Assembly: GCA_037349105.1 (NCBI GenBank)
Contig: JAYJMM010000119.1
Span: forward strand, 7,327,001-7,391,000
DNA: 64,000 nt
Direction: 5' to 3'
Origin: Limnomonas spitsbergensis
Taxonomy: Eukaryota > Chlorophyta > Chlorophyceae > Chlamydomonadales
Position 1 is the first letter of the stretch. Every line of letters begins with the position of its first letter. A model generated the notes under the pieces. It made no database searches and was not told the origin of the DNA. It worked only from the letters and a program-made list of their open reading frames with translations. Positions 3,194-62,793 of the stretch are shown here, piece after piece. A program made the translations under genes and the position numbers.

Positions 3194-6100
3194 ATGAGCG
3201 GTCGAGGCTTCGTGCCCCCCCCGCCTGGGAAGCAGATCCAGCCCGTGAAGCACACTGGCAACATCCCCGGCCAGCGCGTCGACTGGAACAATGTGCCCAT
3301 ACCACAAGGTTACGTGCCCGGTTTGGGTCGAGGCGCTTCAGGCTTCACGACACGGTCGGATATCGGACCAGCAAGAGCTGCAGTCAAGCTTGATGACAAG
3401 GTGCGTCATGCGTGGGACTTACTGTGTGGGGAGATCTTGGTCAAGCATGGGTACCATGCATTGACATGCGTGTCATGAATGATTGTGCATGGTTGGGTGC
3501 CTCGAGTCATGATGCAGAAGGTGATAATGTCATATGTACGTGCAGGGGTACCATGCGATACCGCATATACCTTGCAATACCATGTTCAATGTGTTTCTTG
3601 GGGGGCAAGCACCTGCATGGGCATGTGCCTCCAGGCAGGATGCATGGGTAGATCATGTGAAGTGACCAGTGGGGACCATGTGGCCAGGCGTGCATGATGT
3701 TGCATGGCAAGCGACATATCGACGCAGGGGAGCGCTTGTGCACTAGAGTGTGTGTGCTTGTGTGTGGGGAGGGGGGTCATAAAATGGGGAGCGTGGCACG
3801 GCTCCCAAGCAGGCATGCTTACAGATCTCCAGTCTTGCATGGCGACTATCAAGCTGTAACGTCCTAGAACGTCAACGTCTAAGGCTTTGCAGAAGTTCAC
3901 TGATGTACATATATATTATGGACAGTGTATCGTATCTTGAGGAGACGTTGAGGAGACACTGACAGTATAGAGTGAGGTGGGGCTCTTTGCACTGTAGAAT
4001 ACATATTCCATTCAACCACATAGCTACGTGCTACACAAGCCATGCAGCTTGTGGATGGATGCATGGATGCTGCGACAAGGACCATCATGTCCATCCCGGG
4101 CATCATGACCGCTTGGCAGGCTGGGGAAGAGTTCCCATGCATGCGTGTTGGGGATGATGGCATGGGTTTTAATCAATAAAGGATCATAGGCGTGTTCAGG
4201 GTAAGGGGATCACGAGCGCATTCAGGGTTATGCGAGGGGAGGGGATCACGAGCGTGTTCAGGGTTAGGGTTCGCGTACAAGGGTGGTACATGTCGTTACG
4301 TGTGTGTTTGGACCAGTCTTGAAAGAGGATAGACAACTTAACAAGGGCCGCATGAGCGCATGATAACAACAGGGGTTGTGCCTATGTCCTCTCGCCCTGT
4401 TGGATTATTTGCCATCAAGTGATTGAGTTGGCATTGTTGGTGATGCCAGTGAGTATCGCATGATCCATTGTGTCGCCCCCACCTGCACAGGATGGTGATG
4501 CCAAGGTCGGAGAAGACGACAACAAGTTCGACGAGTTCATGGGGAATGACGCAGGCGCGTTCGCCGCCACTGGCCAGTACGACGAGGACGATAAAGAGGC
4601 CGATGAGATCTGGGAGGCGGTGGACAACTTCATGGACGAGCGGAGAAGAGTGGGTCTGGGTTTAGGGAGAAATAGACCTGACCCGGGACCCTAAATCCTT
4701 AACCCCTAAGTCCTAAATCTTTAACCCTAAATCCTTAACTGTAGAAGGTACCTGCTGGCACACCAAAACTACCCGGGGGCAGGTGGCTGTAAGGGTTCCC
4801 TCTCCAGCTGACGGTCACTGGAACTGAAAACTGGTGATGATGTGAGGGAAGGCGGTTAAAAATTTGTCATGGTGGTTAAAAATTTGTCGGAGGGACGAGG
4901 CCTCAGCCCATGCCGCGTTGTTTCCTTAACCCTCATGCCCCTGCGAGGCGTAGTTTTCTTTCTTTCATGGACACAACAACAGGTAGCATTGGGTCACGCT
5001 GAAGGCTCATACAAGTGTGTCTGCTTCGGATTCTGGTGCATGCCCTTTGCTGATGTATACCTGCTCCACAAGTGTATCTGCATGCGCATTGCATGCATGT
5101 CTTGCATGGCGTTCATGTGCATGGCATGCGCATCGCACCCATGGCATCCATACACATAGCATCATCTGTCAGCATGCTCGCGATGAAGACATATTTAGTA
5201 CTCCAAAACCCGGCGCTCCATCTCTCGTAGTGCTGTCCTCCCGCCGCGGCCGTAGCCTGCATTGCACACCCCCTGATGCGCCTCCCGCGCTGAAAAGCTC
5301 CCAAGCGGGCAGAGGCTGTGTGTTGGTCCCTGAGGCACCTGCCGCCCTGAACATGGGCCGGTGGTGGCGATGCCGTGTGGGCGCTGCAAAGGGCTTGCCG
5401 GGGTTCCGGCGTCGCTCTGGAGGCCCGTCGGGGGCCGCGCTGCGTCCGCTGGCACACTGGGGGCACCGGGGGCATGGGGGCGCAGGCAGCTGTGGGCGGT
5501 CCGCCGTCGGCAGCTGCTGGGCAGTGTGGAATTTGAAGGCGAATCTGAGCGTCATGCTGGTCTATCTTTCATGGCAGAAGTTGTTGATACCGGCATGTGC
5601 TACTGTTGTTTTTGATCTCTGTTGCATGCTTGCTCACATGGCCGTGCTCTGCCTGTAACTCTACTCCATACCGGTATTGGTATTTGAGCCGCGTCTACAT
5701 TCTATGGAAGTAAGCTGTGCACATGGACAAGCCTGGGTATTCTGGAAGTGCATATGCATGCCCCTGTGGTTATATGAAGGAAACCAACTTTTATGCCACA
5801 GGACTGGGTGGGGCCAAAACTTGCGTCATGCGTGGTTTGGCCGACGCCTAGGAAAACTAAATGTTTGTCATGAATACGGTAAACCATTATTCATGGAGGC
5901 AGGTAATTCTGGGTGAGCTCATAGGTGCTAACCTTGACCCCTCTCGCGGGATCGCCGCGGGCATCTATATGCACTTTTGCATGGACACAAACCAGCATGT
6001 GCTGGAACAATGATAAAGGCACTTGCAAGTGCATTTTTGTGATCCGCATTCATATTCATGTTATGCACATGTGCACATGCTCAACAAGCTAATATGCAAA

Positions 6101-9100: not shown

Positions 9101-12100
9101 GACCAAAACTTGCGTCATGCCTGGTTTGGCTGGTGCCTAGGAAAACCAACGGCTTGCCATCCACCATCCATTATTTATAGTGGCAGGTAATTCTGAGTAA
9201 GCTGCGCTGGACCCTCTTGTGGGATCGCCTCAAGCAGCTATGTGCACTTTTGCATGGACGCAAGCCAGGATGCACTGGGGCCATGATAAAGGCACATGCA
9301 AGTGCATCAATGTAATCTGCATTCATAATAATGTTTTTCACACGTGCGCTTGCTTCACGAGCTAATATGCCTGCACATGGAGTTCTCTTTGTGCCAGATC
9401 TGCATGCATGGCATCACCTGTCAGCATCTCAGCATGCTCGCGATGAAGACATATTTAGTACTCCGAAACCCGGCGCTCTTTCCCTCGTGGTGCTGTCCTC
9501 CCTCCCGCCGCGGCCGTAGCCTGCATTGCACACCCCCTGTCGCGCCTCCCGCGCTGAAAAGCTCCCAAGCGGGCAGAGGCTGTGTGTTGGTCCCTGAGGC
9601 ACCTGCCGCCCTGAACATGGGCCGGTGGTGGCGATGCCGTGTGGGCGCTGCAAAGCGCTTGCCGGGGTTCCGGCGCCGCTCTGGAGGGCCGTCGGGGGGC
9701 CGCGCTGCGTCCGCTGGCACACTGGTGGCACTGGGGGGCATGGGGGCGCAGGCAGCTGTGGGCGGTCCGCCGCCGGTAGCTGCTGGGCAGTGTGGAATTT
9801 GAAGGCGAATCTGAGCGTCATGCTGGTCTATCTTGCATGGCATGAGTTGGTGATGCAAGTATATACTGTTGTTGCTTTGTGTGATTGAAGTATGCCCTTA
9901 GTCCGCTCCTCATCCCTTTCCCAACTTGTTTTTGCCAAGGAAAGCTTTTCGGATATGACTCGCGCTCATAGTCGAGCCTGTGCAGTTCCAAACGAGATTT
10001 GTTTGGTTTGGACCACTTCTTGTCTGTGGCAATTTCTTAAGTTTCTGCCAAACAGCCACTGACTTTTGAATTTGAATTTGAGCGTGCCTTCAGGAGCGCC
10101 GCGATAACAGGTTGAAGGAAGAGATCGAGAAGTTCCGAGTGGAGAACCCCAAGATCACGGAGCAGTTTGCGGATCTGAAGAGGAAGCTGTCCGAGGTGGG
10201 CTATTGGATGACAAGTTTCCAAGATATGATTTCGAAATCTAGACAGCGCCTTTTGCCTGGCCCTTCATGTTTCATGCTGAAAGGCCTTAAAGCATCTGTT
10301 GGTGCGGTGTGTGCTCTCAAAAGCAGGTTCCTGACTTTCCGAAAAAACGGATTTGACCCGCAACTTGTATTCAAATCTGTTCATAGATTTTGAATGAGGT
10401 CCAGCTGTTGGAGCTGTTCATATAACACCGCTTGACTCCCAATCTGGTGCAGCAAGCTTTGCTTGAAAGGGCACCCGAAGAGGGAACTGGGCTTCGTGGT
10501 TTTTATTCCCCATTCATGCACGGACTTGTGTCGTCATTCATGCGCGGATTTCATGTCGTCACTCATGCACTGGTGCAGGTCAGCTCCGAGCAATGGGAGG
10601 CAATCCCCGATATCGGCGACTACACCATCAAGAAGCAGCCACGTATGCAGGTGGGTGGTTCTCTTGCTGTGTCCATGCATCGCGCATGCAGGTGGGTGGT
10701 TCTCTTGCTGTGTCCATGCATCGCGCATGCAGGTGGGTGGTCGTCTTGCAGTGTCCATGCATCAGGCGAGGTTTCAAATTCCCGAGGGACTGGATGAGGA
10801 CGGCGGGGTGGGAACCGATTGGGTTCAAGTCATAGCTGCGTCCTCATGCTGCACTACGCCATTGTGCCTCAGCAAGCACCTAATCTCCTTGTTTTGATGC
10901 ATACCGGTAAGGTATTTGTCCATGTCACCACCTGTATCCCGACCTTCTAATTCGCGTTTCCCGGCACTTCCAACGCCTTTGGGTACTAGTGTTCAGCGTC
11001 GCAAAAGGAGTCACAACAATATGTGACTCTGCCTTTGAAGAGTGTTCTAATTTAGTTGATCATACCTGTACTGCACCAACCGCTGTTTGATCATACATGT
11101 ACTGCACCAACCGCTGTTTGATCATACCAGTACTGCACCAACCGCTGTTTGGTCATACCAGTACTGCACCAACCGCTGATTGATCATACCAACACTGCGC
11201 CAACCGCTGTTTGATCATACCAGTACTGCACCAACCGCTGTTTGATCATACCTGTACTGCACCAACTGCTGTTTGATCATACCTGTACTGCACCAACCTT
11301 TATTATTTGTGCATTCCTTCTCCCTGTCTGCAGTCTTTTACTCCGGCATCCGACGCCCTGCTTCAATGCTCCAGCCTCTCAACCCAACACTTGTAGATCA
11401 CCCTCCTGTCTGCAGTCATTTGCTCCGACAGCGAATACTCTGCTTCCCTGCTCCAGCCTCAACTCTTACACTGTTGACAACCTCCTCCCCATTTGCAGTC
11501 ATTTACTCCGGCATCAGGCACCCTGTTTCACAGCTCCAGCCTCGGAGCAGTCTCCTCCATTCCACTGTACCATTACCCCTGAGCCTGTTGATCGCCCCCT
11601 CCCCGTCTGCAGTCCTTTGTTCCGGCTCCGGACACCCTCCTGTCCAGAGCGGTCCAGGAGAAGGAGCTGTCCAACAGTATCGATCCAGCAGGGTTCAGTG
11701 GCATGGCAACACCCATGGGCGGAACCAACAGCACCATCAGCGACCTGACTGCCATCGGGGAGGTGTGTGTGTGTGTGCGTGTGTGTGTGACAGTGATGCC
11801 TGGAGGGTGTGGCAGACCTTCATTGGGGGGCTTTCGTGAAGAGAGGTTTGAATCAATAATGACCAAACCGCAACCCGAACCCCTGCCAGAGGTCCAACCA
11901 GGAGGGTATAGGCGGAACCAACAACACCATGCCATAAGTGATCTGACAGCCATCGGAAAGGTGTGTGTGTGATAGTTGTGTAGCTGTTTCAAAAGGTGGT
12001 CTGCAGCACGGCTGGCTCGGTGCTGCAGACCACTGCACTGCAGTGCAGGCTGCTGTTTGAAGGCTGTCGTGGTGGGTCCTTAGGTCCATTGAGGACGTAA

Positions 12101-15100
12101 CCAAGACCGGTCTACAGCTAGTGGTCCAACCAGGTGGGCTTGCTGCACCAGGATTCGCTGCTGTAGGCCGGGTCGTAGTTGAGGTGAAGCTTAGGTGTAG
12201 CTGAGGTGTGCTGAATAAAATATCACTTGTGTGTGTGACTGACCTACTGGTTGTTTGCCCGGTCAAGCTGGACTGTTTCTCTCACCCGTGACAGCGCAAG
12301 CCATTATTTGCGATCCCAACCTCACCTTCAGGGTTGTATGACACCGTGTTTGCCTATAGCCAAGCTTGATTGTAGGTTGGATCCGTTATGAGGGTTTATG
12401 TTTTTATGATATAGGGTTTTATTATCCTAAACCCTATAGCCAAGCTTGACTGAAGGGTGGGTCCGTTACGAGGCAGACCACTGGAAGCTCTACGGACCTG
12501 TTAGCAGGTAGAAGCTCTGCAGGCCTCTGCATGAGCAGAAGTTCTTCCTCTACTTGTTGGCAGGTAGAGGCTCTGAGGACCTCTGTCAAGACAGACCTCA
12601 AGACTGACTGCGACCATGCCCTGTCCTCCATTCCCCACCTGAAGGGTCGTGGCACGGTGCTAGAACCCGTAACCCTAAACCTTAAACTCTTAACCCCACC
12701 TGAAGGGTCGTGGCACGGTGCTAGAACCCGTAACCCTAAACCTTAAACTCTTAACCCCACCTGAAGGGTCGTGGCACGGTGCTAGAACTCAAGCTCGACC
12801 GCATGGCAGATTCGGTCTCTGGGCAGACCGTGGTGGACCCCAAGGGCTACCTGACGGACCTTAAGTCCATGATGCTGCGGTCCGATGCGGACATTGCCGA
12901 CATAAAGAAGGCGCGGCTGCTGCTCAAGAGCGTCACTCAGACAAACCCGTACCATGCGCCAGGTAGGCTCGTGCACCCCATGCGCCAGGTAGGTCCATGC
13001 ACTCCATGCGCCAGGTAGGCCCATGCACCCCATGCACTTTGTGCCTTCCCCATGCATCCAATGCACCGCATGCGCCGGGTGGGCCCATGCACACGCTGCT
13101 CCCCAGCTGCGTTTCCTCCTATCGTTTCCCAGTCTCTTACATTGTATGCCACGTACCGGAACCTGCATCAGGTGCACTGGGTCATGTGACTGCCAGAGCA
13201 CGAGCAGACTAGGCTCACAGATGTTTGCACTCTCCAGGACAGCTCCAATGCTTCCCCCCTCCATGCACTCTGCATGCCCCCCCCACCACCCCTCCTCATG
13301 CACGCTCCGTGCTTCTCCCGTGCACCCTTCATGGCGTCTGACCCAGGCGGTAACGACCCTGACCATCCCTCGCCCCTCAAGCTGGATTGCCATTGTGCCC
13401 CTAGGGGCGCTGGGTTTGAGTGTCTGGATCAACTCAAAGCATTTGAACCTGGACCTTAACCCTAAATCCTAGACCCTAACCCTCAGCCCTGACTGCCTTC
13501 CACCCCTCAGGCTGGATCGCAATTGTGCGCCTCGAGGAGCTGGCTGGGAATTTCGCTGAGGCTCGGCGGTTGCTCACTGAGGTGCGGCTAAGAGCAGCAC
13601 CCACAAAACCTTGACTTTTGCCTCCTAGCCAGCAGACTAAACGCTGCCTGGATTTTCCAACAATTTTGCTGAGTGGTGGCATTGATGCTGTCAGGCTCTA
13701 AAAGTGTGAATGTACTGTCTGCTGCTGTCAGGACCAAACAGTGTGAATGTACTGTCTGCTGCTGCTGCTGCCAGTGCCAGTGCCAAGCAGTATGCATGTA
13801 CCGCCTGCTGCTGTCAGGACTAAACAGTGTGAATGTACTGTCTGCTGCTGCTGCTGCTGCTGTCAGTGCCAAGCAGTATGAATGTACTGCCTGCTGCTGT
13901 TACTGTCAGGTCCAAACAGTGTAATTATACTGCCTGCTGCTGCTATCCCAACGCCCAATACTTGGCCCCTCTTTAATAAACCAATATTGGACCCCTGGTG
14001 CCTTCCCGCAGGCCTGTGAGAAGTGCCCCCGGAGTGAGGACGTGTGGATGGAGGCCAGCCGGGTGTATGCCAAGCAGAGCAGAGAGAGTGCCAAGGCGGT
14101 GCTGGCTCGGGGAGTGGCGCAGGTATGTGGGAGCAGGGAGGGAGGGGAGCAGGGAGGGAGGGGAGCAGGTATGTGGGAGCAGGGAGGGAGGGGAGCAGGG
14201 AGGGAGGACGGCAGGGAGGGAGGGGAGCAGGGAGGGAAGGGAGCAGGTATGTGGGAGCAGGGAGGGAGGGGAGCAGGGAGGGAGGACAGCAGGGAGGGAG
14301 GACAGCAGGGAGGAAGGGGAGCAGGTATGTGGGAGCAGGGAGGGAGGGGAGCAGGGAGGGAGGGGAGCAGGGAGGGAGGACAGCAGGGAGGGAGGGGAGC
14401 AGGGAGGGAGGGGAGCAGGGAGGGAGGACAGCAGGGAGGGAGGGGAGCAGGGAGTTAGGGGAGCAGGGAGGGAGGGGAGCAGGGAGGAAGGACCGCAGGG
14501 AGAGAGGGGAGCAGGGAGGGAGGGGAGCAGGTATGTGGGAGCAGGGAGGGAGGGGAGCAGCAGTGCGTCTACTACGATCAGGTCATTTGCTAGGGTCATA
14601 GCGGGGGTGAGGGGGATATTACTGGCCAGATACAGTCGGGACTCCAACTCGGGAGTATGGGGGAGTAGGGAGGGAGAGGAGTAACAGTGCGGCTACTAGG
14701 ATAACATTTGCTTTCTTGCTGGGTTAATAGGGGGGGGTGACAGGGTATATTACTGGCCAGATACAGCAAGGGGAGGATATAGAATGGTGCTTTGTAGGAG
14801 TAAAGCAATGCTTGTTTGCTTGCGGTGTAGCTAGCGTGTCATCTTGTCATCCTGAGGCATGTCACCACTGAGGCACAGATTGCCGCATACCCAAGGGGCC
14901 TGTGCAGGGATAGATATTACCTACGAGGAGGAGCAACATGATGCCTGCTTGCTTGCGGTGTCGTGATGTTGTCATTTTCTGTGGCATGCCGCCACAGATT
15001 GTGTACTTGAGGACCAGGGCAAGGATAGATTATACCTTTGAGGAGCAGTGTTTGCTTGCATGTTTGCTTGTGGCGTCAATTTTGTCTTCCTACTGCCTGT

Positions 15101-40857: not shown

Positions 40858-40859
40858 GC

Positions 40860-41716: not shown

Positions 41717-42149
41717 TGCAGATCATTTAATCTGGTTTTCACTCTCATGATAACAGGTTCTAATGGATAAGAGGCGCCGAGAAATCACATGGGATTCAAC
41801 CACGGGCCAAGATTCAAATCTTGCGGAGCTTCGGGCGTCGCTTTGGAAGCAAGAACTGGGCAATCAAGGACTCCACCAGTCCAGCAGCAAGCCATGCGGA
41901 AGGAGATCAACGTCTATCTCATCCTCAAATGATTCCTGTTAATGACGTTACACCTCTGGGCGATGTTGAAAAGAAGCTCGGCCACGCTTGCCAGGGAGAA
42001 GGCAATAAAGGAGAAAAAGGATAGCATCGTCTACCTCATGATCAAATGAATCCTGTGACGGCAGCAGATCCCGGGCCAATTATACAAAAAAGTGAAGCTG
42101 TCACCAGGAAGGAGATTAACCACTTCAACCGACCTAACTATCCCCCTAT
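41717..42149. other. 3' flank of the TYW gene with LINE-tail fragment
   Basis: Probable 3' UTR of the minus-strand TYW gene. Includes a copy of the TTACACCTCTGGGCGATGTT LINE-tail block at 41948 and, near 42062-42085, a decayed echo of the last TYW exon (CAGCAGATCCCGGGCCAATT versus GAGCAGATCCTGGGCCAGCT). Confidence 0.5.
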
Positions 42150-51100: not shown

Positions 51101-54100
51101 CCGAGTGGTCAGCCACGCTTGCATCCTCCGGCCAGCGTGAGGGAGCAGAGGGAGGGCCACCACCGCCATCGACACCGCTAAGCCTGCAGTTTGTCCAGCT
51201 GGTATGCCCACTGATTGCCCCCCTGGTTCTCCCGCCTGCGTTCCTCCTGCCACCCTGCCATCACCGCCACGGACACCACCGCCGCCCACCGCCGCCGCCA
51301 TGCAGCCTGCTGCCTGTGCGGCTAGGATCCCCCCTGCTTGCCCACCTGGCTCTCCCGCCACTGGTTCCCCTGCCACCGCCCTGCCGTTCCTGTAGCCCTC
51401 TGCCAAGCTCGTACCCTCAGCGACAATGGACGCGGCTGGACCCCATGCCTTCCCAGGAGGCCCTCCCGCGGGTCCGTTCGACAACGATGATGTCGAAGGC
51501 AACGTGGGTGCGGCGGCCTTGATCGCCTTCGATAACGATGATGATGAAGGCCATGTGGGTGCGGCGGCCTTGATCGCCTTCTTGGACTGATCCAGCCAGC
51601 CAGCAGCCTTCACTGCGTCTTTAACGCCCTTGGCCAGACTGCAGGGCACCTCCAGCACCCAGCTGCTGTCCGTCAAGGAATCACCCGCGGTTGTATGATG
51701 CACCTGCTTCTGCTGCGCCTGCTGCTGCGCTTGCTGCGGCTGCTGCACCTGCTCCTGCACTTGCTGCTGCAGCTGCACTAGCTGGGGCTGCTTACGAATC
51801 CGCTGCATCTCCGCACTCAGCTGCTCAAGGTCCAGGGCCCATGCCCCGCTGAACACAGAGCCAAAGCTGAAGCAGAATGCGCCACCGCCGACAAGCACCA
51901 GTGCCTGACAGGCAGCTCCGGAGCCGGTCTCGCCGTCTGCCCGAGTTGCAGGTAGGGTTGAGCACACTCCCTGCTGGTCACACGGGGGTTTGGGACGGTC
52001 AGCCTGGCGGCCACCCAGCAGCGTGAGGATCCCAGCCGCGTGCCGAACAGGTACGAAGTCGCCGTCAGGAGCGGGACGGGGCGGCGCCGCGGCCGCCGCA
52101 GCTGCGCCCTGTTGAGGAGGAGGAGTCAGTGCGCTTGGCGGCGGCGGCGGCGGCCGGGCTGGTATGCGGGTCCAGGTTTCGGAGTCCGTGTCAAAAGCGT
52201 GAATGGAGTCGTGGTGCCCAGTGGGATAGCCGCCAGTCAGGAGCAGGCAGCGGCCCTCCGGCCAATCGGTCAGGATATGGGAGAAGCAAGAGGGAGGGGC
52301 ACCATTCCCAGCGCTGCCCCCGCTCACGCTGTCGGTCCCTCTCCTGCCCCCTCCCCCTCTTTCCATGTCACAACTGCTACCAACCGACTCCTCATCTATG
52401 CGTCGCCAGTACAAGGCTTTGGGTTTTTGACGATCCTTCCACATCCCCGGCTCCGGAACCAATGGCTCTTTAACGGTCTCCATCACATGCGCCAGCCAGG
52501 CTTCCACCTCGGATAGCTCTAGGCAGTACATATCGCCGTAGTGCCGACCGTACGTTGACGTACCGCCGTGGAGGTACAGCCGGCCGCCGGCCACCGCCAT
52601 GGCGTGGGACTTGCGGGCGCATGGCCAGGTCTTGCTCCCACCTCCGCTGCTGTTGCCATGCCCGCCCTGCACCATTGTGTCCTTCTGCTGTCGACCGGCC
52701 ATTACAGGCCCACCACCGCCGACCGTGCCGGCTGTATTGCCGGCAGTGTCAGCAGTACTGCCTGGGGTGCCAGCTGTAAGCTGTGTCCACAGCCAGACTC
52801 CTCCACCAGATCCTCTGCCAGCTGTCGCACCGCCAGCTGACACATCGCCAATCATACTGCCAGCTGACTCATCCCCATTAGCCTGACTGCCACCCACTTC
52901 AATCCCAGTCGGCCCAGCCTTCACACAGTGCAGCATCCACAGGTCTCCCAGCAGGTCGTTGGCCCCGCCCTCCCCGCTGCATCCGCCAAACACATACACA
53001 CGGCCGCCAGCTGATACCGCACCATGCCTGTATCTCCCAGGCCACGGGGAGCAGGGCTGGGCCGCATCAGCTGCTGCTGCTCCCGCTCCCGCTGCAGCGC
53101 CTGGCGTGGCGGCCATTGCATCTCCTGCTGCATCTCCTAACCTGGCTGCTAGCAGGTCGGCTTCTGATGCCCCTCCTGGCGTGCTGGCAGCTCCGGGTTT
53201 TCCAGCTGCGTCTGGCGCTCCGACAGCCCCTGTTGCCATAGCCACTGCAGGCACAGAAGCTGCTGTACTTGCTCCCGTTCCTTTAGTCACTGCACCCAGT
53301 ACGGTCCGTTGTACTGCCTGTGCTGGATCCATCCTTGGATCCAGACGCAGCCAGCGCCAGGTCAGCAGATCCAGCAGCCAGACATCCCCCAAGGCATTTA
53401 TGGGGCTGGTGCGGCCCCCAATCACAACCACAGCATCGCCTGCATTTCAAATTTTGGCACGCAATATGTATTCGGAAATGCAGGAGGTAGGAAGGGACAG
53501 TTTGTTTACACGGCAGCGAGGACGCAGCTATCAGCCCAGGTGGAAGATATATACCGGCAGGGACTCATTCAACAGTGCTGCTGAATGGGTTTGGGGCCCA
53601 AATTCTTCAACTTAAACCCTACGGAACGTAAGGGCAGGGACTCAACCAACGGTGCTGCCCAATGGGTTAAGAGCTTTAATCCTAAAACCTAAGAAACTAG
53701 AGATCAGGGCCTCACCCGGCAGTTCAGCTGTATGAGTTAAGGGTTAAAACCAAAATCCTGAGAAACTGAAGAGCCGGGACTCACCCAAAAGTGCAGCTGC
53801 ATGCCCCATCCTCGCTGTGAACCTTTCCCCTCCAGTGGTGCGCACCTCACTCCAGCCGCTCGCCGCATCGTACACCAACACATCCGATCTACAGGCCACC
53901 AGAGCAGCATAATTCATTAAATAATTGAAGGCCAGGACCCCTCACTTATCATTAGGAGCAGCGGTACTTCAATTGCTGTCTAACGTCCTAGAAACGTAAA
54001 ATATCCTGCCCTGGAAACGTTAGATATTCTGCCATGTACCGTAAACACAAAATATCCTGCACTCCTTCGGGATCCATGCTTCTTCAGGATTCGGCAGCAT

Positions 54101-57100
54101 TTTGCAACATTTCGAGTTTGTGACAGATTCTGCAATCCTAGGTGCAGGAAAGCGCACATGAGTATCCGGCGATGACGTATTATTCATCCAGGTATCATCT
54201 GGGCATGCCCTATCACAACAAGCCATCCACACCACCCTGTCTTCAACGCCTGGGCATGCCCTATCACAACAAGCCATCCACACCACCCTGTCTTCAACGC
54301 CGGGGCATGCCCTATCACAACAAGCCATCCACACCACCCTGTCTTCAACGCCTGGGCATGCCCTATTACAACAAGCCATCCACACCACCCTGTCTTCAAC
54401 GCCGGGGCATGCCCTATCACAACAAACCATCCACACCACCCTGTCTTCAACGCCGGGGCATGCCCTATCACAACAAGCCATCCACACCACCCTGTCTTCA
54501 ACGTCTGGGCATGCCCTATCACAACAAGCCATCCACACCACCCTGTCTTCAACGCCTGGGCATGCCCTATCACAACAAGCCATCCACACCACCCTGTCTT
54601 CAACGCCTGGGCATGCCCTATTACAACAAGCCATCCACACCACCCTGTCTTCAACGCCGGGGCATGCCCTATCACAACAAGCCATCCACACCACCCTGTC
54701 TTCAACGCCGGGGCATGCCCTATCACAACAAGCCATCCACACCACCCTGTCTTCAACGCCGGGGCATGCCCTATCACAACAAGCCATCCACACCACCCTG
54801 TCTTCAACGCCGGGGCATGCCCTATCACAACAAGCCATCCACACCACCCTGTCTTCAACGCCTGGGCATGCCCTATCACAACAAGCCATCCACACCACCC
54901 TGTCTTCAACGCCGGGGCATGCCCTATTACAACAAGCCATCCACACCACCCTGTCTTCAACGCCTGGGCATGCCCTATTACAACAAGCCATCCACACCAC
55001 CCTGTCTTCAACGCCGGGGCATGCCCTATCACAACAAGCCATCCACACCACCCTGTCTTCAACGCCGGGGCATGCCCTATCACAACAAGCCATCCACACC
55101 ACCCTGTCTTCAACGTCTGGGCATGCCCTATCACAACAAGCCATCCACACCACCCTGTCTTCAACGCCTGGGCATGCCCTATCACAACAAGCCATCCACA
55201 CCACCCTGTCTTCAACACCGGGGCATGCCCTATCACAACAAGCCATCCACACCACCCTGTCTTCAACGCCTGGGCATGCCCTATCACAACAAGCCATCCA
55301 CACCACCCTGTCTTCAACGCCGGGGCATGCCCTATCACAACAAGCCATCCACACCACCCTGTCTTCAACGCCGGGGCATGCCCTATCACAACAAGCCATC
55401 CACACCACCCTGTCTTCAATGCCGGGGCATGCCCTATCACAACAAGCCATCCACACCACCCTGTCTTCAATGCCGGGGCATGGCCTATCACAACAAGCCA
55501 TCCACACCACCCTGTCCTCAATGCCACTTAACGCCATGTTCTCGCCTAGTCATGTATGACTGCCTCAGCTTTACCCCCCCCTCACCCCCCATTGCCCACT
55601 CCCTTTTGTCTCCACCCACCCCCACCCACCTCAGCACCCTCAACCACCTGCACACACACCCTGTTACCCTCTCCCTGCCCCCCCTTCCCCGCCCCCCCTC
55701 CCCGTCTTCCCCCCTCCCCACCCACCTCAATGCCCCCAACCCCTACACACACACTGTTCCCCCCTCCCTGCCCCCCCGTCTCTGCACCCCCCTCCTCGTC
55801 GCCCCCCCTATCCCCCCCCCGTCAACCCCCCTCTGGTCCCCCCCCACCCCCCTGCCCCTCCCTGTTCCCACCTCCTCATGTGTGCCCCCTCGCCCCCGTA
55901 GCCTCCAATCACCACAAGGCGCCCCTGATGCACCACAGAGGCATGGCCCCATCTCAAGAGAGGCTCCGGCCGCATGACTGCCACCAAAGCAGAATCCCCA
56001 GCAGCACCTCCGCTGACAAGGGTGGGGCCTCCCACTGCACTCTCGCTGACCAGAGCAGGATTCCGAACTGTACTTCCACCGACCTGGGCAGAATGTACCG
56101 GGCGCAGTGGCAGCGGCTGCCACGCCAGGCCATGCGTCTCCGGGGTAGCCGGCCTGTCTTCATCGCCTGCAGCATCGCTGACCAGCCGGTCTGATGCTCG
56201 ATCGGTGGCTGCAACTGCCGCCCCTTGCTCTGCGGCTGATGCTTGGCCAGTCGTCACTCCTGGGGGTGCGACACCTAAGGGTTCGACTCCTCGCTCTGAT
56301 CCCCCAGCGGCAGTCACAACCTTTGCAACTGCTCCTGTCTCCGCCACAGCAGCTGTAGCAGCAGCAGCAGCAACAGCCACTACCGCAGCATCAGCAGTAG
56401 CAGCAGAAGCAGCCTCTTTCCTCTCCACTGCCTGGATTCTTTTCAGCAGCTGTAGCTGGCGCCCCAGCAGCAACCTCAGTGGATCCACAGCCTGACCGCT
56501 TCCTCTGATGAGAGGAAGGGGGACAGCAGTCCCCAGATGACCCACCTCCCGCCCGTTCCGCAGTTCCGACTGCTGTTCCCCAGTGCAGTCCATAGGCTGC
56601 TTGTGAGCGGCCCGTGCCGGGCGTCGAGGGAATACATTTGCAGCAGACGCACTAGCGGCCTTGCTGGGCAGGTGAACCCAGGCGGGCGCGGTTCCGGGGG
56701 GCGGATCAGAGGAGGAAGGGAAGGAGGGAAAGGCGCCACTGTCCATGGCCAGCCCCAGGGATGCTGCAGCCGCATAGGGGCTGATGTTGAGCTGTTCCTG
56801 ATGGCAGGGAATCAGGGTGGAGGGATGGCCGAGCTTTGATAAATGTTCTTGGATGTGAACAACTGACTATGCTATCCTTCGGTATTGCTCTCCCTCCCCA
56901 TCCTTGTTTCACATGCTAGTATACCACCCTGAGGAGATGGTGTAATCCGTGTAGAGTGGAAGGGTGAGGAGATGGTGTAATCCGTGTAGAGTGGAAGGGT
57001 GAGGAGAGACTTAGTTCTGATGAGTCTTCTTGAACGTGACCATGTTAACCTTTGGTATCACTCTCCCTCCCCAACCTCGTTTCACATGCAAGAACACCGT

Positions 57101-60100
57101 CCTCCTATAGATGACTCCGTACTCCCTACCTAGCCCACCTCCCTTCACACACCTCCCGCCACAAGCTTCAAATGATCACCCTCACTGCCCTCCCAGACAT
57201 GCACGCACAACGTACTCCTACACCCGATCCCCTTTATATCTGTCTCCGCCATACATTCACACACTCCCACACCTGTGTGAACACCAGCTTGAGCTGCTCC
57301 TCAAGGTTGCCAATGCGTGACTCATTCTCATTGAATTTGTCATTGCCAAGTTGCACCTAACGCAGGACACACAAATTACCAGGATCAGGGTTCAGGGTTT
57401 AAAAATCCAGGTACGGAGAGTAAGATCCTGGATCCTAAGGAAAAAAACAGCGTCATCATAAGCATCGTAACACCTGCCCAGTCAGACCTGCAGATGTCTT
57501 ATACCAAGGCACCAGCGCGGACCATGCTCACACTTATTTAGACGCATTAGGAATTGCGTGACTCCATGATACTTTTCATCACCAAAACAGCGACAGGTCA
57601 GGACTGGGGTTGAGATGACCCTGATTGTTTTCGAGTTTTCTTTGGATTTTCACCCTGCCACAACAGGACTGAAAGAACTCGGGTCACACCATGGGCCTAA
57701 AATCTCAAAAGGTCAACCGAAATCTTTTTTTCCCTCACCGATGTTTTCCCTAGCCGGAGGCAGCTTGCTCAATTTCCCGGAAGTGTGACAAGCGCGACAT
57801 TTTTATTACCCCAGACACCACGGGCGGGGGCAGAAAGACGCTCGACTGTTTAGATCTTAGCCAACTCGAACTCAGCAAGGACCTTGGCTGAAGTGCCAAT
57901 ACCCTGCACTCCTAAACTTTTGAAAACCCCTCAAAGATCAGCGTTGCTTTTTTGCTACAATGCCACCTGCAGCGGGCCGCCCAGCGGCCGCCAAAGGCCT
58001 GATTGGACGAAGCACCTGAACCGGCCTACAGCGGCACAAACAGCACAGCAAGCCACTAGTGGGGCCTCCTTGGAAGGAGGCCGGAGTGCAGCTGACAGGT
58101 AGCTGAATCACGAGGAAAAACAAACACTGTCACAGACCTCACCAGTCCAACACCTTTTCAAGATCACTCGAGACCGAAGTGAGTGCGGGGACGTGTCCTA
58201 GACACAGCTCACTCAGGCGTTTCCTTGGGGCAGTTTCCTCTCTTCCTCTCTATTTCCGAGCTGGTGGGGTGAAGTGTTTGTAAAAACAATTATGTTCAGC
58301 AGAGCATCACATTTGATGCATGGGACATGTGCCCGTTAACCGGTACAGGCACTTGATAGACTAGGACGGTAAGCAGAAACCAGTGACGCCCCTGGGCAAG
58401 CAACTATCAAACAACCACAACAGTGGCGTACGTCGGGGGGGGGGGGGGGGGGGGGCGCAAACTACGCTGATAAACTGCCTTGTTGCATTGCCGTGGTTGC
58501 ATGAATGCCTGATGAAAGAGAACTGCCCTTCGCCTCAAACAATGGCTTTTGACAACAATGCGCACCCGGCAGTTTCAGCGCTGCGCGGACAATGGCTATG
58601 CTTGCCGTGGGGAAAGATGTGTAAATTATGCTTCCCATCCGCCATGGTAATTAACAGTGCAGCTGCGTGATATGCTAGATTAATTATTCTTCGGGGGGGC
58701 GAACTCTTCCGGCGAGTATGGTACTATACCTATTCGAAGAGAAAATGAAACCATCTTTGACTACCTGGTCAGTTAAGGGCACGATGTTGTGATCCAAGAT
58801 GAAATGGTAGTAAATCCACCTGGGCCGGCACGATAAAATCTAAGTTTCCACGTTCTGCAATACGGACTGCTATACGGTATCTGCCTTCCTAACTGTAACT
58901 AACTGACACCCAGAGTTCAATGTGGAGAAAAGGTTCGGAGAGGCCATATATAATGACACGCACAAATCGAGACAAGGATGACACGCACAAATCGAGACAA
59001 GGATGACACGCACAAATCGAGACAAGGATGACACGCACAAATCGAGACAAGGTTCCAAATTGTTCTTGATTGGGGGACGACGGACTGCTCAATGGGGTCG
59101 ATAATTACGACTTTTGCGGCGTGTACATGCCGGAGGCGTGCACCATTGCCCCAAGCTTTACACCTAGGCCCATAGTGCCAAGACCAAGCATGTCAATGAC
59201 ACAACACCTCTGGGCCCTGCTCAAAAAGGCTCAGCCACGTGGACGCCCAACTGTCTCGTTGGAAGAAACTTAAGTTCAGAGCAGGTTCAGAGGGAAAGAA
59301 GGAGAAAAAAACAAATGAAAGAACTACCTCCCCCCCCAAAGGAAAAGGCAGCCCAAAGTAAACCTTGCCCCTCTCAAGCCTACTCCCCAAGAAGGCAAAG
59401 AAAACAACAAAACTAGGCATCAACAATGTAAGGGAAACACAAATGCAGGCTGAAGTGCTGCCCAATTCCTAACCGAGGCCCGGCAAAAGTGATTTCCCAA
59501 GGCCAGGGCCAGCCGGCCAACAAGGCCAGGGCCTAGGCCCAGGCCAGCGCCAGGGCGAGGGCATGGGCATGGGCTACGGCCCAAGTCAGGACCAAGGCCA
59601 AAGCCATGGCCAGACCTAAACTCTTTCTAATACATTACCCACAGTCCTACACTCACTCACATCACTGCCCAACCCCAATCCCCCACCCAATCCCATCCCG
59701 ACCCAGTGTCCACGACCTAGCCCATGTCCTTCACCAATCCAAAACTCACCCACCGCCCTTGAACAAACTAGGACCCAGCCATAGCTCTTGGCCAAAGCCC
59801 ACTCCCAACCTCGCCCACCCCAGCCCCAAATCGTCATCCAAGTTCAAGCCCTTGACCAAGCCCAAGCCCAAGCATCAGCCCTTGCATAAGTCCATGCCCG
59901 AAACCAAACCCAGTCCCAGACTTATCAGGAAGAACCTCTCAGCAACTGCTACTCGTACTCGTCTTGTTACACCCACTTTGCTGGGGTAGGATGCCCTGGC
60001 TTTTGTGAAAGATGTGATAGATATGGTTGAGATGTAGACATTTCAGAGGCTGGGGATTTCTTTGACTGACCCACTTTTCTTCCCCAGCCTGTTGTGTCCC

Positions 60101-62793
60101 TTGACATTATTTCCCCTTTCCTATAGCAATGGCGCTTTCTTAAGGGCCCTGAGATAAATGTCCTCTGAAAATCGTACACAAAACGTGGCAATTTCTTTGC
60201 AAGGGAGCTGGCTAGTTTTTCTTGGCTTTAACAACAGGATTCACAACTGCATGTAGAAACGCAAGTTCTGCAACGTGAACTACAGGACATTGAAGGGCTT
60301 AGGGTTATGGCTTAAACCCGAAGCCCTAAAACCCTAATCGCAAGTTCTGCAACGTGAACTGTTGGACATTAAAAGGAGGCCATCAACGCATGGCTTAAGC
60401 AGAGGAAGCGCAGGAACGTTCAGCAGGGATCAGGGGCAAGATAATTGATTTCAGCAGATGAGAGCAATGCACAGCTGAAAACAATGACATTCTGCCCCAA
60501 CATTGGTGTGAACCCAACTACCGGTATGAATACTGCACAACGTATTTTCGAGTGAGAGGACTTAAGCTCAGCAGTAGAAGGGGGAACCTTTCCGAAAGCA
60601 GGTTTGTCACTGGGTTTAAGGTTCAGATCGAGGATTTCCATGTTTTTAGCCCCCTCCCTTACGTTACTATGCTCCAACCGTGCTCATTTCCATCAATAAT
60701 ACCCGTTGTTTCGCATGGGATGCTTCCTGAACTTTGGGGGCTTAAAGCCCACTGCACCCTCAGAGGGGGGGGGGCTTGAGCGCCACCCTGCACCCCCCCA
60801 CACAGACGCTTTGACTCGGCTTCACTAGCTACACAAAAAACAGAGCTCTTTTTAAGTCGAAAAAGCACTACAAGATGAGGGATTTCTAAAACCTAAAAAC
60901 CAGCATTGTTTCCTACATATTTTTATGCTTTCGTCTACCTCAAAGATTGCCAACCATATGAGAGCTGAAAGAGGCTCTTCCGCTAGTGACAGTGTCATTG
61001 TGATCGATTTTTTGGTTTTGTGGGACAACGAGGAAGAATAAAAACAGGACACAAATGATGGGCCTCCAGAGGGAGGCTTGAAGTCAGTCCAAGTCAGGTG
61101 GGCCAGAGAAAACTTGCTCACCGCGCTAGCATGCCAATATGCCATGTATGTCGACTCCTGTATCGTCAACACGACATTTAACTTTTCGCCACTGTTGCGT
61201 TCGAAACGGGAGGATGTGTGGTCGAGCGTGAGATCCATCCCGTTAATGGCATGCGTGCAAGTTAACCCACATATTGCCCAACATATGTTCTAGTGGTAGT
61301 GTGCTTTAGCTAGAGGGGCTTCGAGGTGGGGTACACAATATTTTCAGACCTTCCTCATAACTTTTCACACATGAATTATTGTGGCCATGTGAGTGCTCGT
61401 TGGTGGTGTGCCTTTCCTGTTCCTGCTTGCCTTTCATCAGCTGACAACAAGGGCCACATGCGCACCCGGGCTGTTAAATGTGGTAGTATCTCAGGTTTTC
61501 TAGGGTTGGGCGGCTGGCCTCACACCTTGTCAAGTCCCAGCGAAATAAAAAGATTTCCCCCAGTACTTCTTGACCGGCCAACATTCACTGGTAACTGGCC
61601 GTTCTGTATGACTGAAAGGTCCTGACTGATGACCCCCAACATGAATCAGGCATACCGGTAGGGGCATGGGGCATCTCTCAAGTTGATTCTTGAAAGCAAG
61701 CAGCGACTATCATAACGTCCTTCTGCCAGAAAGCCTCTCTCGTGACATTTCTCAGTTTAATTTCCACGTCCATTTGTGGCGCCCTCTTGCTGACCACTGG
61801 GCATATCAGGTAGCGGATGTAGGGTTTAGGGTTTAGGGTCTACGGTTCAACGTTTCAGGTTTCAGATTCAAGGTTTAGGCTGACCACTGGGCTCACCAGG
61901 TAGCGGATGTAGGTGTCAGGGACCAGCAAGATGCCTTGATCTGCCACAGGGGCCTCCAGACGCAGAGAGCAGCGGAATGCCACCTGTGAGGATGGGATGA
62001 CAATGAAACTTTGATGTGCCTATCGGGTGGCATTGTAAAACCTTCTTATACCACAGGGGCCTTCAGACGCAGAGAGCAGCGGAATGCCACCTGTGAGAAT
62101 GTGATGACAATGTAACTGATGTGCCTTTCAGTTGGCTTTGTAAAACGTTATACCGCAGGGGCCTCCAGACGCAGAGAGTAGCGGAATGCCACCTGTGAGA
62201 ATGTGATTACAATGTAACTGATGTGCCTTTCAGTTGGCTTTGTAAAACCTTATACCACAGGGGCCTCTAGGCGCAGAGAGTAGCGGAATGCCACTTCTGA
62301 GGGTGGGATTACAATGTAACTGATGTGCCTTTCAGTTGGCTTTGTAAAACCTTATACCACAGGGGCCTCTAGGCGCAGAGAGTAGCGGAATGCCACTTCT
62401 GAGGGTGGGATTACAATGCACCTAATGTGCCATCAGGTTAGCTGTGAGTGTATAAATTGTTTACCACATGGCCTGATACAGAGAGCAGCGGAATGCCACC
62501 TACACAGAACGGGGTTCCGATATCGTATTTAAAGGGGGAGGGCAAACATGCAGATATTGGTGAAGCTAAGAGAGTACCCCATGCACTGCATTCCATAAAC
62601 TGATGACTTGGGGCACAAGCAGGCTAACTCTGTGTTAGCCTTACCATGATGCGCGCCCCCCTCGCCCCCACAGTCATGCCACTCTCGCGGTAGCCTGCGC
62701 CCCGTGCGGCCAGCAGCATCCGCCTTGCTGTCTCCATGTCCCGACACTCAGCGTGCAGAATAAACGGCTCGAAACGCAGGACCAAGCGGGAGC
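42150..62793 (-). CDS. multidomain wybutosine-synthesis protein: TYW3 - kelch - TYW2 - TYW5, 17 exons seen, 5' end off window
   Basis: Works on guanosine 37 of tRNA-Phe. Minus-strand exons: 62793-62645, 61983-61897, 57356-57285, 56797-55872, 53888-53785, 53439-50963, 50505-50229, 49542-49453, 49090-48980, 47988-47867, 47383-47176, 46108-45979, 45762-45129, 44599-44213, 43798-43686, 42874-42652, 42281-42150. They sum to 6242 nt and all phases join (2 nt of an upstream codon plus 2080 codons including TGA at 42152-42150). Two introns start with GC (after 49453 and 45979), the rest with GT. Modules in order: TYW3 methyltransferase, long Ala-rich linker, kelch repeats, TYW2 aminocarboxypropyl transferase, Ser-rich linker, TYW5 JmjC hydroxylase. 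Land plants are known to fuse TYW2, TYW3 and a kelch domain; here TYW5 is added. As in plants, no TYW4-type carboxyl methyltransferase domain precedes the kelch part within the window. Exon edges are heavily copied into the introns. Confidence 0.92.
42850..42950 (-). repeat. TYW exon 16 acceptor and exon start duplicated in frame (69 bp)
   Basis: True exon 16 starts at 42874 after CCTTCATTAG. A second CTGTCATTAG|GTTCTCCCAGG lies 69 bases upstream (exon-equivalent start 42943), followed by the same CCCATGCT.TGCAC.CTGACG block. 69 bases is 23 codons with no stop, so use of the outer acceptor would insert 23 residues before the JmjC strand. Confidence 0.88.
43030..43720 (-). repeat. 40-bp minisatellite made of the TYW exon 15 end and donor, 17 copies
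   Basis: Read on the minus strand each unit is GATC.ATGACCCAGACCTGGA, TCTGTACCCAAG|GTGAGC: about 34 bases of the exon 15 3' end plus its 5' splice site. The real exon end is at 43686 with gtaagc; 16 further copies run down to about 43036. Three middle copies carry TATGGAAGG or TATGAAAGG instead of TACCCAAGG. It is the donor-side mirror of the PRPF6 exon 17 array. Confidence 0.95.
43985..44020 (-). repeat. LINE-tail fragment, inverted
   Basis: CTTGACAAAGTGTGAGGCTG followed by GCCGCCGAAC is the reverse complement of the block at 20440, 31763 and 61505. In the intron between TYW exons 14 and 15. A related GTGGATTAAGGAAGCC block lies just left at 43866 and also at 27162. Confidence 0.6.
46095..46370 (-). 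repeat. TYW exon 12 acceptor region copied (about 4x)
   Basis: The junction block CCAGCCGCCTGGGGG (reverse strand: intron end plus first bases of exon 12, true start 46108) recurs near 46191, 46265 and 46345, each followed by GGGGTAGGGGATGA. Units of about 78-90 bases. A further lone copy sits at 47093. Confidence 0.75.
46640..47090. repeat. ~65-bp minisatellite in the TYW intron 11
   Basis: Six to seven copies of a unit containing CTGATACCATATCCCTGATT and TTCCGCCGCCAAGGCACCC. Very uniform. No clear likeness to a flanking exon. Confidence 0.92.
47370..47470 (-). repeat. TYW exon 11 acceptor duplicated
   Basis: CTGGACAGGGGTGGGGTGGA next to the true acceptor (exon start 47383) recurs at 47439 as CTGGACAGGGGTAGGGTGGA, including the first few exon-like bases (reverse strand CCAG|..TATGCCTG versus CCAG|GTTAATGCCTG). 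Confidence 0.7.
47500..47720. repeat. duplicated ~110-bp block with GGTAAGGGACCGTAATTAC
   Basis: The stretch TATCGGTAAGGGACCGTAAT and the following GCGCAAT..C.CAGCACTG part occur twice, at about 47559 and 47648, with a weaker third part near 47475. It contains inverted ACGGT/ACCGT pairs. In TYW intron 10. Confidence 0.75.
47975..48380 (-). repeat. TYW exon 10 acceptor and exon start copied (4x, ~115-bp unit)
   Basis: The plus-strand block GCCCATGCGCATGCGCTCGG followed by TCACGTTGC and ...CAGTCACTGAGTGG...GGGTTG (exon 10 start 47988 and upstream intron) recurs at about 48070, 48195 and 48300 as CTGCCCATAC(A/G)CA...CTCAGTCACAT. Copies keep about 25 exon-like bases each. Confidence 0.85.
48585..48975. 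repeat. ~38-bp minisatellite, CCCACACTAAAATGAATGTC
   Basis: About seven imperfect copies of CCCACACTAAAATGAATGTC then AGGG.CCCC in TYW intron 9, interrupted by the copied exon 9 end at 48783-48880. Confidence 0.8.
48783..49060 (-). repeat. TYW exon 9 end and donor duplicated
   Basis: The last ~90 bases of exon 9 (48980-49065) with the ...TACTCCTCAG|gtttgggg donor recur at 48790-48880. The copy lacks a few bases (ACCTTGACG versus ACCTTCTGCCTTGACG) and has an internal repeat of GACGTCACGCGCTGC, so its frame is broken. The frame-keeping copy at 48980 is taken as the real exon. Confidence 0.85.
49900..50245 (-). repeat. TYW exon 7 donor region copied (3x, ~135-bp unit)
   Basis: GATGGGCGCAAG|gtgtggaatt on the minus strand marks the true exon 7 end at 50229 and recurs with donor-equivalent positions near 50093 and 49949 (the last as GCTAG|gcgtgg). 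The whole 135-base unit, including TATTTGTTTATTTATTTACC, is repeated. Confidence 0.85.
50470..50720 (-). repeat. TYW exon 7 acceptor and exon start copied (3x, ~97-bp unit)
   Basis: TTTGC(C/T)GGGACATGGCGCTG then (G/A)GCAAGCTG(C/T)AGGGAG, the first ~27 exon bases plus acceptor on the minus strand, occurs with exon-equivalent starts at 50505 (real), 50605 and about 50699. The middle copy reads CTACAG and the outer one CTGCAG. Confidence 0.9.
53550..53800 (-). repeat. TYW exon 5 end and donor copied (4x, ~72-bp unit)
   Basis: The donor block TGCAGCTGCACTTTTGG|gtgagtc (minus strand, exon end 53785) recurs at about 53713 (GG|gtgaggc), 53640 (GG|ttgagtc) and 53565 (GA|atgagtc), each followed by CC(C/T)(G/T)..CTTA. 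Only the first two keep GT. Confidence 0.85.
54185..55515. repeat. 51-bp minisatellite, ~26 copies, in TYW intron 4
   Basis: Unit GGGCATGCCCTATCACAACA then AGCCATCCACACCACCCTGT and CTTCAACGCC(G/T). Variation is limited to a few positions (CAC/TAC, CGG/CTG). Because 51 is divisible by three, ORFs of 450-610 codons run through it in one plus and two minus frames; these are considered artefacts. No likeness to exons 4 or 5. Confidence 0.97.
55560..55860. other. pyrimidine-rich intron stretch next to TYW exon 4
   Basis: C-rich, T-containing sequence with runs such as CCCCCCTATCCCCCCCCC. On the transcribed strand this is a G-rich intron start immediately after the exon 4 donor at 55871, with potential to form G-quadruplexes in the pre-mRNA. 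Confidence 0.6.
56930..57010. repeat. tandem duplicate of a 44-bp unit
   Basis: TGAGGAGATGGTGTAATCCG then TGTAGAGTGGAAGGG occurs twice in a row at 56930 and 56970. In TYW intron 3. Confidence 0.85.
57361..58955. other. TYW intron 2, distal part, no supported gene
   Basis: Includes a dispersed block at 58315-58360 shared with 23760-23830 and a run of 21 G at 58435-58455. Short ORFs (57884-58102, 58383-58670) have no recognisable domain. No splice-linked exon was found between 57356 and 61897. Confidence 0.45.
58950..59055. repeat. 25-bp tandem repeat GATGACACGCACAAATCGAG
   Basis: Four copies of ATGACACGCACAAATCGAGA plus CAAGG, the last three identical. Confidence 0.95.
59195..59465 (-). repeat. 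LINE-like 3' tail, full-length version
   Basis: Begins ATGACACAACACCTCTGGGC, then GCTCAGCCACGTGGACGCCC and AACTGTCTCGTTGG, and continues with the purine/pyrimidine block shared with 1-310. Lies inside TYW intron 2 in the same direction as the gene. Confidence 0.65.
59480..59990. repeat. low-complexity GGCCAGG / CCAA-rich tract
   Basis: 59480-59610 is built from short GGCCAGGGCC and CAAGGCC words; 59620-59930 from CCCA/CCAAGCCC words. The 127-residue plus-strand ORF here is compositionally biased (Pro, His, Lys, Ser) and is not regarded as a gene. Confidence 0.6.
61500..61550 (+). repeat. LINE-tail fragment
   Basis: TTGGGCGGCTGGCCTCACAC then CTTGTCAAGTC, same block as 20440 and 31763. Confidence 0.6.
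61785..61915 (-). repeat. TYW exon 2 end and donor duplicated
   Basis: True exon end at 61897: minus strand CTACATCCGCTACCTG|gtgagcccagtggtcagc. A copy at 61797-61830 reads CTACATCCGCTACCTG|atatgcccagtggtcagc, so its donor is destroyed. Telomere-like GGGTTTAGGGTTTAGGG lies between. Confidence 0.9.
61945..62510 (-). repeat. TYW exon 2 acceptor and exon start copied (6x, ~102-bp unit)
   Basis: The minus-strand block CACAG|GTGGCATTCCGCTGCTCTCT then GCGTCTGGAGGCCCCTGTGG, i.e. the acceptor and first ~38 exon bases, has exon-equivalent starts at 61983 (real), 62090, 62192, 62294, 62396 and 62499. In the copies CCTGTGG is followed by TATAAG instead of the exon. Two copies have TCAGAAG|TGGC, altering the acceptor. 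Confidence 0.94.

What the first reader, a model, noticed from the sequence alone, without database searches (positions are those of the whole stretch)
3194..62793. Locus-wide pattern: splice junctions are tandemly copied into introns at 20 or more exon edges
In two unrelated genes on opposite strands the intron DNA next to an exon is made of copies of that junction: PRPF6 exons 4, 5 (both sides), 6 (both), 7, 8, 9 (both), 13, 17, 18, 19, 22, 23; TYW exons 2 (both), 5, 7 (both), 9, 10, 11, 12, 15, 16. Unit lengths run 26-135 bases and ages vary from near-identical to decayed. Inference: either tandem duplication is rampant and only junction-spanning cases are visible as exon copies, or the duplication process is targeted to junctions (for example R-loops, template switching, splicing-linked reverse transcription). 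Either way it is a route for intron growth and decoy splice sites.
Basis: partly seen in the sequence, partly recalled or inferred. Interest (0 to 1): 0.92.

Follow-up and report, generated by a model that had tools for sequence, protein, structure and literature searches.

The report
Exon edges stuttered into algal introns
In this green alga roughly one in five of the exon edges examined has extra copies of itself in the neighbouring intron, most likely because tandem duplication strikes non-coding DNA throughout the genome and only duplications that straddle an exon edge without harming the exon survive, which would be a simple route for introns to grow and collect decoy splice sites.

Summary
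Spliced protein alignment gives 24 PRPF6 coding exons and a composite of 17 TYW exons. It is not local: 12 of 82 edges in four genes chosen blind on other contigs, and 10 of 44 edges of ab initio exons in 22 sampled loci, show it. Tandem arrays cover 27% of a 220-kb sample and about 27% of 65 introns. Three units tested occur only at their own locus. Unit offsets scatter around the junction, copied exon sequence fades over about 60 bases into the exon, and splice dinucleotides in the copies are hardly better kept than their neighbours. Best reading: genome-wide tandem duplication filtered by selection on exons, with the exon-nearest copy predicted to be spliced. Targeting is not needed, but a 1.3- to 1.7-fold excess of edges over intron-internal sites is not fully explained. 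The closest precedent is exon stuttering on chicken dot chromosomes (PMC12954441); this case is in a green alga, on many contigs and seemingly more frequent. Variation between individuals and RNA were not testable.

The parts
3194..28739 (+). PRPF6 gene, 24 coding exons by spliced alignment (first and last introns less firm)
   Evidence: best listed homologue Chlamydomonas eustigma 73%
42165..62793 (-). TYW3-kelch-TYW2-cupin gene, T2 to T18, composite model (T1 not resolved; T4, T5.3ss, T7.5ss, T8.3ss uncertain)
10645..10763 (+). donor of PRPF6 exon 4 (10650|10651) in a 41-base x 2.9 array
11320..11522 (+). 3 copies of the acceptor of exon 5 (11612|11613)
11937..11971 (+). copy of the donor of exon 5 (11762|11763)
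12633..12788 (+). acceptor of exon 6 (12766|12767) in a 61-base x 2.6 array, 100% matches
12952..13092 (+). donor of exon 6 (12962|12963), 26-base array plus a further copy
13357..13402 (+). decayed copy of the acceptor of exon 7 (13510|13511)
14129..14560 (+). 78-base array holding 6 copies of the donor of exon 8 (14122|14123)
15085..15112 (+). copy of the acceptor of exon 9 (15217|15218), only 4 exon bases
15330..15752 (+). donor of exon 9 (15373|15374), 184-base x 2.2 decayed array
18338..18375 (+). copy of the acceptor of exon 13 (18433|18434)
20944..22338 (+). 58-base x 24 array, 98% matches, holding the acceptor of exon 17 (22290|22291) and 48 exon bases; 23 decoy acceptors
   Evidence: its unit was found only at this locus
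23330..23472 (+). 2 copies of the acceptor of exon 18 (23557|23558)
24494..24524 (+). decayed copy of the donor of exon 19 (24434|24435)
26808..27020 (+). 41- to 48-base array holding the acceptor of exon 22 (27013|27014)
27660..28134 (+). 107-base array holding the donor of exon 23 (27726|27727) with 67 exon bases, plus a further copy
61944..62431 (-). 102-base x 4.7 array holding the acceptor of T3 (61984|61983)
   Evidence: its unit was found only at this locus
61789..61823 (-). copy of the donor of T3 (61897|61896)
53557..53803 (-). 69-base array and copies of the donor of T6 (53785|53784)
50582..50719 (-). 2 copies of the acceptor of T8 (50506|50505; acceptor weakly supported)
49928..50246 (-). 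140-base x 2.2 array, 96% matches, holding the donor of T8 (50229|50228)
48774..48807 (-). copy of the donor of T10 (48980|48979)
48309..48349 (-). decayed copy of the acceptor of T11 (47989|47988)
47429..47463 (-). copy of the acceptor of T12 (47384|47383)
46189..47104 (-). span of two hits for the acceptor of T13 (46109|46108) in the later scan, one of them far off (one hit)
43039..43720 (-). 40-base x 16.9 array holding the donor of T16 (43686|43685); 15 decoy donors
   Evidence: its unit was found only at this locus
42813..42950 (-). 69-base x 2 array holding the acceptor of T17 (42875|42874) with 62 exon bases

Best explanation
Copies of splice junctions sit in the introns of this alga most likely because tandem duplication of short segments hits non-coding DNA genome-wide, duplications inside exons are removed by selection, and a duplication that straddles an exon edge would be harmless as long as splicing uses the copy nearest the exon. 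The duplicated unit then expands or decays like any other intron array, so the intron grows and collects decoy donors or acceptors. Shown here: the copies, their local origin in the three cases tested, their presence on other contigs, the scatter of unit offsets, the fade into the exon, and decay with little special keeping of the splice dinucleotide. Inferred: the duplication mechanism itself (replication slippage, template switching or unequal exchange; array coverage is higher in GC-rich intron sequence), purifying selection as the filter, and use of the exon-nearest copy, which rests on protein conservation and not on RNA.
For: Arrays with period of at least 10 cover 59,584 of 220,000 bases in 22 loci outside the window (27%; median locus about 14%, range 0.4-98.5%) and 20% of the window; arrays of period at least 15 cover 13,590 bases against 50,122 bases of 65 introns (27%, a little exon sequence included). 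Edges with copies elsewhere: two CDC48 genes 6 of 26 and 5 of 26, RPC2-like 1 of 20 and part of EF2 0 of 10, ab initio exons 10 of 44; with the window, 41 of 102 introns have one. Coverage of sites falls 0.31, 0.27, 0.18, 0.12, 0.07, 0.03 at 0, 12, 24, 36, 48 and 60 bases into the exon (121-130 edges per point). Exon share of the unit runs 0.13-0.90 in 14 junction arrays, KS p=0.15 against uniform. Splice dinucleotide identity in copies is 0.909 (74 observations) against 0.850-0.882 around it. Units of 3 of 3 arrays searched match only their own locus (the search skips simple repeats and very common words). Expected junction arrays come close to the observed 14 if ancestral introns were about 240 bases (13.1), within the medians of 198-343 reported for six core-Reinhardtinia algae (PMC8226300, passages).
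Against: Edges are hit more often than ancestral-weighted intron-internal sites: 48 of 204 (0.235) against 0.135, ratio 1.74, CI 1.17-2.51; outside the window 22 of 126 against 0.099, 1.76, CI 1.15-2.56; for copies of at least 90% identity 25 of 204, 1.92, CI 1.08-3.12. On 80 curated introns alone the ratio is 1.55, CI 0.97-2.45. Neutral forward simulations gave 0.70-1.42 over seven settings. TRF arrays: 14 of 60 spanning against 7.2 expected if all non-repeat intron DNA is ancestral (z 2.9). GC matching, done after seeing the excess, brings it to 38 against 29.5 of 160 (P=0.075) and, at 90% identity, 21 against 15.9 (P=0.126), but this leans on two small GC-rich strata; without them it is 32 of 139 against about 21 (from the table). 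Weighted coverage just inside the intron (0.12 at +12; 0.25 unweighted) is below the junction (0.31).
Confidence: 0.66

Rival explanations
1. Duplication is biased towards splice junctions, for example by co-transcriptional R-loops or template switching at exon edges, on top of a general duplication background.
For: Ratio of junction to internal coverage 1.74 (CI 1.17-2.51) over 102 introns and 1.92 (CI 1.08-3.12) for copies of at least 90% identity; TRF events 14 against 7.2; neutral simulations mostly give about 1 or less.
Against: No pile-up of unit ends at the junction in 14 arrays; GC matching leaves 1.29, P=0.075; shorter ancestral introns remove the TRF excess; part of EF2 0 of 10 and RPC2-like 1 of 20; donor and acceptor hits equal, 24 and 24.
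Confidence: 0.22
2. The copies are kept by selection as decoy or regulatory splice sites.
For: 89 of 102 copies keep GT or AG in register; identity at the dinucleotide is slightly above its flanks, 0.909 against 0.850-0.882.
Against: That difference rests on 74 observations and is small; spacing ignores the reading frame, 11 of 37 multiples of three; the 13 matching introns of the CDC48 pair share almost no alignable sequence, two short matches.
Confidence: 0.05
3. Introner-like or other mobile elements that carry splice sites.
For: Repeats with splice sites in introns of a green alga resemble introners in outline.
Against: 3 of 3 arrays searched match only their own locus in the 260-Mb assembly; the copies contain the neighbouring exon's own bases, 4 to 24 in the 48-base windows.
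Confidence: 0.02
4. Assembly or gene-model artefact.
For: Arrays are hard to assemble; filtered ab initio exons had false positives (43 true, 8 false on training genes); some TYW edges are uncertain.
Against: Best copies per edge range from 0.76 to 1.00 identity, which assembly errors would not readily give; 21 of 23 PRPF6 introns agree across homologues; both CDC48 genes have the same 13 intron positions.
Confidence: 0.03

Closest known systems
Sequence stuttering / exon stuttering on avian dot chromosomes (Hron et al. 2026, PMC12954441; outline, sections 7 and 9 read)
   Same: Local expansion of tens to hundreds of bases in introns; some units include the lateral part of an exon with its splice site; coding exons stay intact; more than 90% of exon sources lie within 1 base of the exon border in the paper.
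   Different: In chicken 190 of 236 such introns lie on dot chromosomes (190 of 5,572 dot introns, 3.4%) and GC-rich genes are implicated; here 41 of 102 introns examined, on many contigs, in a green alga whose window runs 48-62% GC per 2 kb. Detection rules differ, so the rates are not strictly comparable. Length variation between individuals is shown there, untested here.
Intron gain by tandem genomic duplication (review PMC3443670, passages; PMC2891723, abstract and outline; PMC4974935, search listing only)
   Same: A tandem duplication that includes splice-site sequence and can leave the coding sequence unaltered.
   Different: There an exonic AGGT is duplicated and a new intron arises; here an existing junction is duplicated into an existing intron, which grows.
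Introner elements of Micromonas (as described in PMC3443670, passages)
   Same: Repeats in introns of a green alga.
   Different: Introners are dispersed over many genes; the three units tested here are local.

Membership tests
Sequence stuttering (authors' three main features) | Introns filled with locally expanded imperfect tandem blocks | tested here: met
   about 27% of 65 introns in arrays
Sequence stuttering (authors' three main features) | Some blocks include an exon edge with its splice site | tested here: met
   26 of 78 window edges; 22 of 126 outside
Sequence stuttering (authors' three main features) | Large intron length variation between individuals | not testable with these tools
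   one assembly only
Sequence stuttering | Local origin of the units | tested here: met
   3 of 3 units searched; the other arrays were not searched
Sequence stuttering (as found in chicken) | Concentration on small GC-rich chromosomes | tested here: inconclusive
   present on C119, C99, C39, C75 and in loci on C116, C112, C41 and C38; no chromosome-wide count was possible
Intron gain by tandem genomic duplication | A new intron position created by the duplication | tested here: not met
   in the two CDC48 genes the copies lie in introns whose 13 positions both genes share; not tested for PRPF6 and TYW
Introner elements | Same unit in introns of many genes | tested here: not met
   3 of 3 units

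The most novel reading that the evidence does not exclude
A genome-wide form of exon stuttering in a green alga in which exon edges are duplicated about 1.5 to 2 times as often as other tolerated sites, so that splicing or transcription itself marks junctions for duplication and drives intron growth.
Probability: 0.2. Interest if true: 0.85.

Novelty: new variant of a known kind. Interest (0 to 1): 0.6.

Why it matters
It shows that the exon-copying intron instability described in 2026 in birds (and mentioned by its authors for gerbils, data not shown) also occurs in a green alga and on many contigs, so it need not depend on dot chromosomes. It gives a simple route for intron growth, with constant production of intact decoy splice sites, and so a natural system to ask how the spliceosome picks one of up to 24 near-identical acceptors. 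It also gives a warning: finding copies only at exon borders is expected under plain duplication plus selection and is not in itself evidence for targeting. The question of targeting becomes directly countable once this genome is annotated.

Tried and rejected
A TRF event count on one strand gave 9 junction arrays of 66 against 6.9 expected; TRF proved orientation-dependent and missed arrays, so it was redone on both strands with clustering (14 of 60 against 7.2). A larger simulation timed out and was replaced by a faster one with a fixed threshold; the first simulation was noisy (0.74-1.42). A first literature search with general terms led to PMC12954441. Searches for green-algal reports, for the term stuttering, for intron gain and for VNTRs at junctions listed no algal case of exon-edge copies that I recognised; of those lists I saw titles and abstract starts. 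PMC3887541 (tandem repeats in plants and green algae) was listed and not read, so such copies in it cannot be ruled out. Gene finding by coding signal was trained on the same genes it was checked on, and the setting used on the sample differed from those. HSP90 could not be examined because its searches did not complete.

Full report
Where it is. The window is positions 7,327,001-7,391,000 of contig C119 of an unnamed 260-Mb assembly in 124 contigs. The best listed homologue of its PRPF6 is from Chlamydomonas eustigma (73%), a chlamydomonadalean green alga.

Gene models. The TYW gene was placed as a composite of alignments to Chlamydomonas eustigma and other homologues; exon T4 and the edges T5.3ss, T7.5ss and T8.3ss remain uncertain and were kept in the counts.

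The observation. Of 78 edges, 26 have a significant copy that spans the junction in the adjacent intron. The strongest are 23 extra acceptors at PRPF6 exon 17 (58-base unit, 98% matches) and 15 extra donors at T16. Using exon bases alone, 9 of 46 PRPF6 edges and 2 of 34 exon-internal controls were significant; both control hits lie in exons whose edges are themselves copied.

It is not local. Two CDC48 genes found with a human guide on other contigs have the same 13 intron positions; 6 of 26 and 5 of 26 edges have copies. An RPC2-like gene has 1 of 20 and part of an EF2 gene 0 of 10. In 22 ten-kilobase loci (20 placed by hand, 2 flanks of the window), an ab initio parser gave 22 introns with confident exons on both sides, in 9 of the loci; 10 of 44 edges have copies. 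That parser recovered 57 of 59 internal exons of its own training genes, and its filtered exons there were 43 true and 8 false, so some of the 44 edges may be false. Altogether 48 of 204 edges and 41 of 102 introns have copies, outside the window 22 of 126 edges.

Background of duplication. Tandem arrays cover 27% of 220 kb outside the window, with a few loci nearly all satellite and a median near 14%; the window has 20%. Arrays cover about 27% of 65 introns with a slightly different setting. So the introns examined are not clearly more repetitive than the sampled genome.

Random or targeted. Three features favour random placement filtered by selection. First, the share of sites with copies fades from 0.31 at the junction to 0.03 sixty bases into the exon. 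Second, the exon share of the unit in 14 junction arrays runs from 0.13 to 0.90 and does not differ significantly from uniform (KS p=0.15). Third, copies decay almost evenly: dinucleotide identity 0.909 against 0.850-0.882 nearby, and spacing ignores the frame, 11 of 37. One feature favours some targeting: edges are covered 1.74 times as often as intron-internal sites weighted by copy number (CI 1.17-2.51; 1.55, CI 0.97-2.45 on 80 curated introns), while neutral simulations with exon constraint gave 0.70-1.42. Part of this can come from GC content, since array coverage rises with GC and edges are GC-richer: after matching, 38 observed against 29.5 (P=0.075). That correction was made after the excess was seen and depends on two small GC-rich strata; leaving them out, the listed strata give 32 of 139 against about 21. 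Part can come from the length assumed for ancestral introns: the 14 arrays spanning junctions exceed 7.2 expected if all unique intron DNA is old, but come close to 13.1 if ancestral introns were about 240 bases, within the medians of 198-343 reported for six core-Reinhardtinia algae (PMC8226300, passages). I therefore hold the neutral reading as best and leave a residual preference of 1.3 to 1.7 open.

Local origin and decoys. Units of three arrays match only their own place in the assembly, 3 of 3 (the search skips simple repeats and very common words), which speaks against introners. Of 102 copies at 37 edges of four genes, 89 keep the splice dinucleotide in register, so these introns hold many sequence-intact decoys. 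That splicing uses the exon-nearest copy is inferred from protein conservation; no RNA was available.

Against what is known. Hron et al. (PMC12954441; outline, sections 7 and 9) described the same architecture in chicken as sequence stuttering, with exon stuttering in 190 of 5,572 dot-chromosome introns, and noted it in gerbil genes (data not shown). They speculate on replication stress or meiotic misalignment. Two of their three main features are met here; the third, variation between individuals, could not be tested. Their observation that sources lie at the exon border is what plain duplication plus selection on exons predicts. Intron gain by tandem genomic duplication (PMC3443670, passages) is a relative in mechanism but makes new introns, which is not what is seen in the CDC48 pair. 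In the searches I saw no report of this from an alga, from titles and abstract starts.

Noticed in passing
G000:C93:311384-356031, C14:232570-306789, C30:215360-378935 (outside the window; L031, L032): Several long uninterrupted RPB2-like reading frames, mostly 36-45% identical to human POLR2B, look like endogenous giant-virus regions. Observed only.
   Followed up: no
G000:C76:580965-694087: An intron-bearing RPB2 gene appears spread over at least 73 kb, with several 3' exons present a second time about 40 kb further on, so intron growth there may be extreme.
   Followed up: no
window 34478-34793: A 75-base x 4 array that recurs in the genome as a 316-base block: 42 full-length matches including its own, 29 of them at 99% or more, among 56 rows, unlike the junction arrays; probably part of a mobile element.
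   Followed up: partly
window about 5200-9900: PRPF6 intron 2 (5.4 kb) holds several roughly 1-kb direct repeats with recurring similar reading frames.
   Followed up: no
window 42165-45762: The TYW gene continues past the TYW2 domain into a cupin-type domain; homologues carry PF13621, as TYW5-like proteins do (name recalled).
   Followed up: partly
window 49453 and 45979 (- strand): Two TYW introns appear to use GC donors.
   Followed up: no
L035 (C99) and L036 (C39): Two CDC48 genes with very similar proteins (identity not measured) and the same 13 intron positions, but only two short alignable stretches among the 13 intron pairs: near-complete intron turnover since the duplication.
   Followed up: partly
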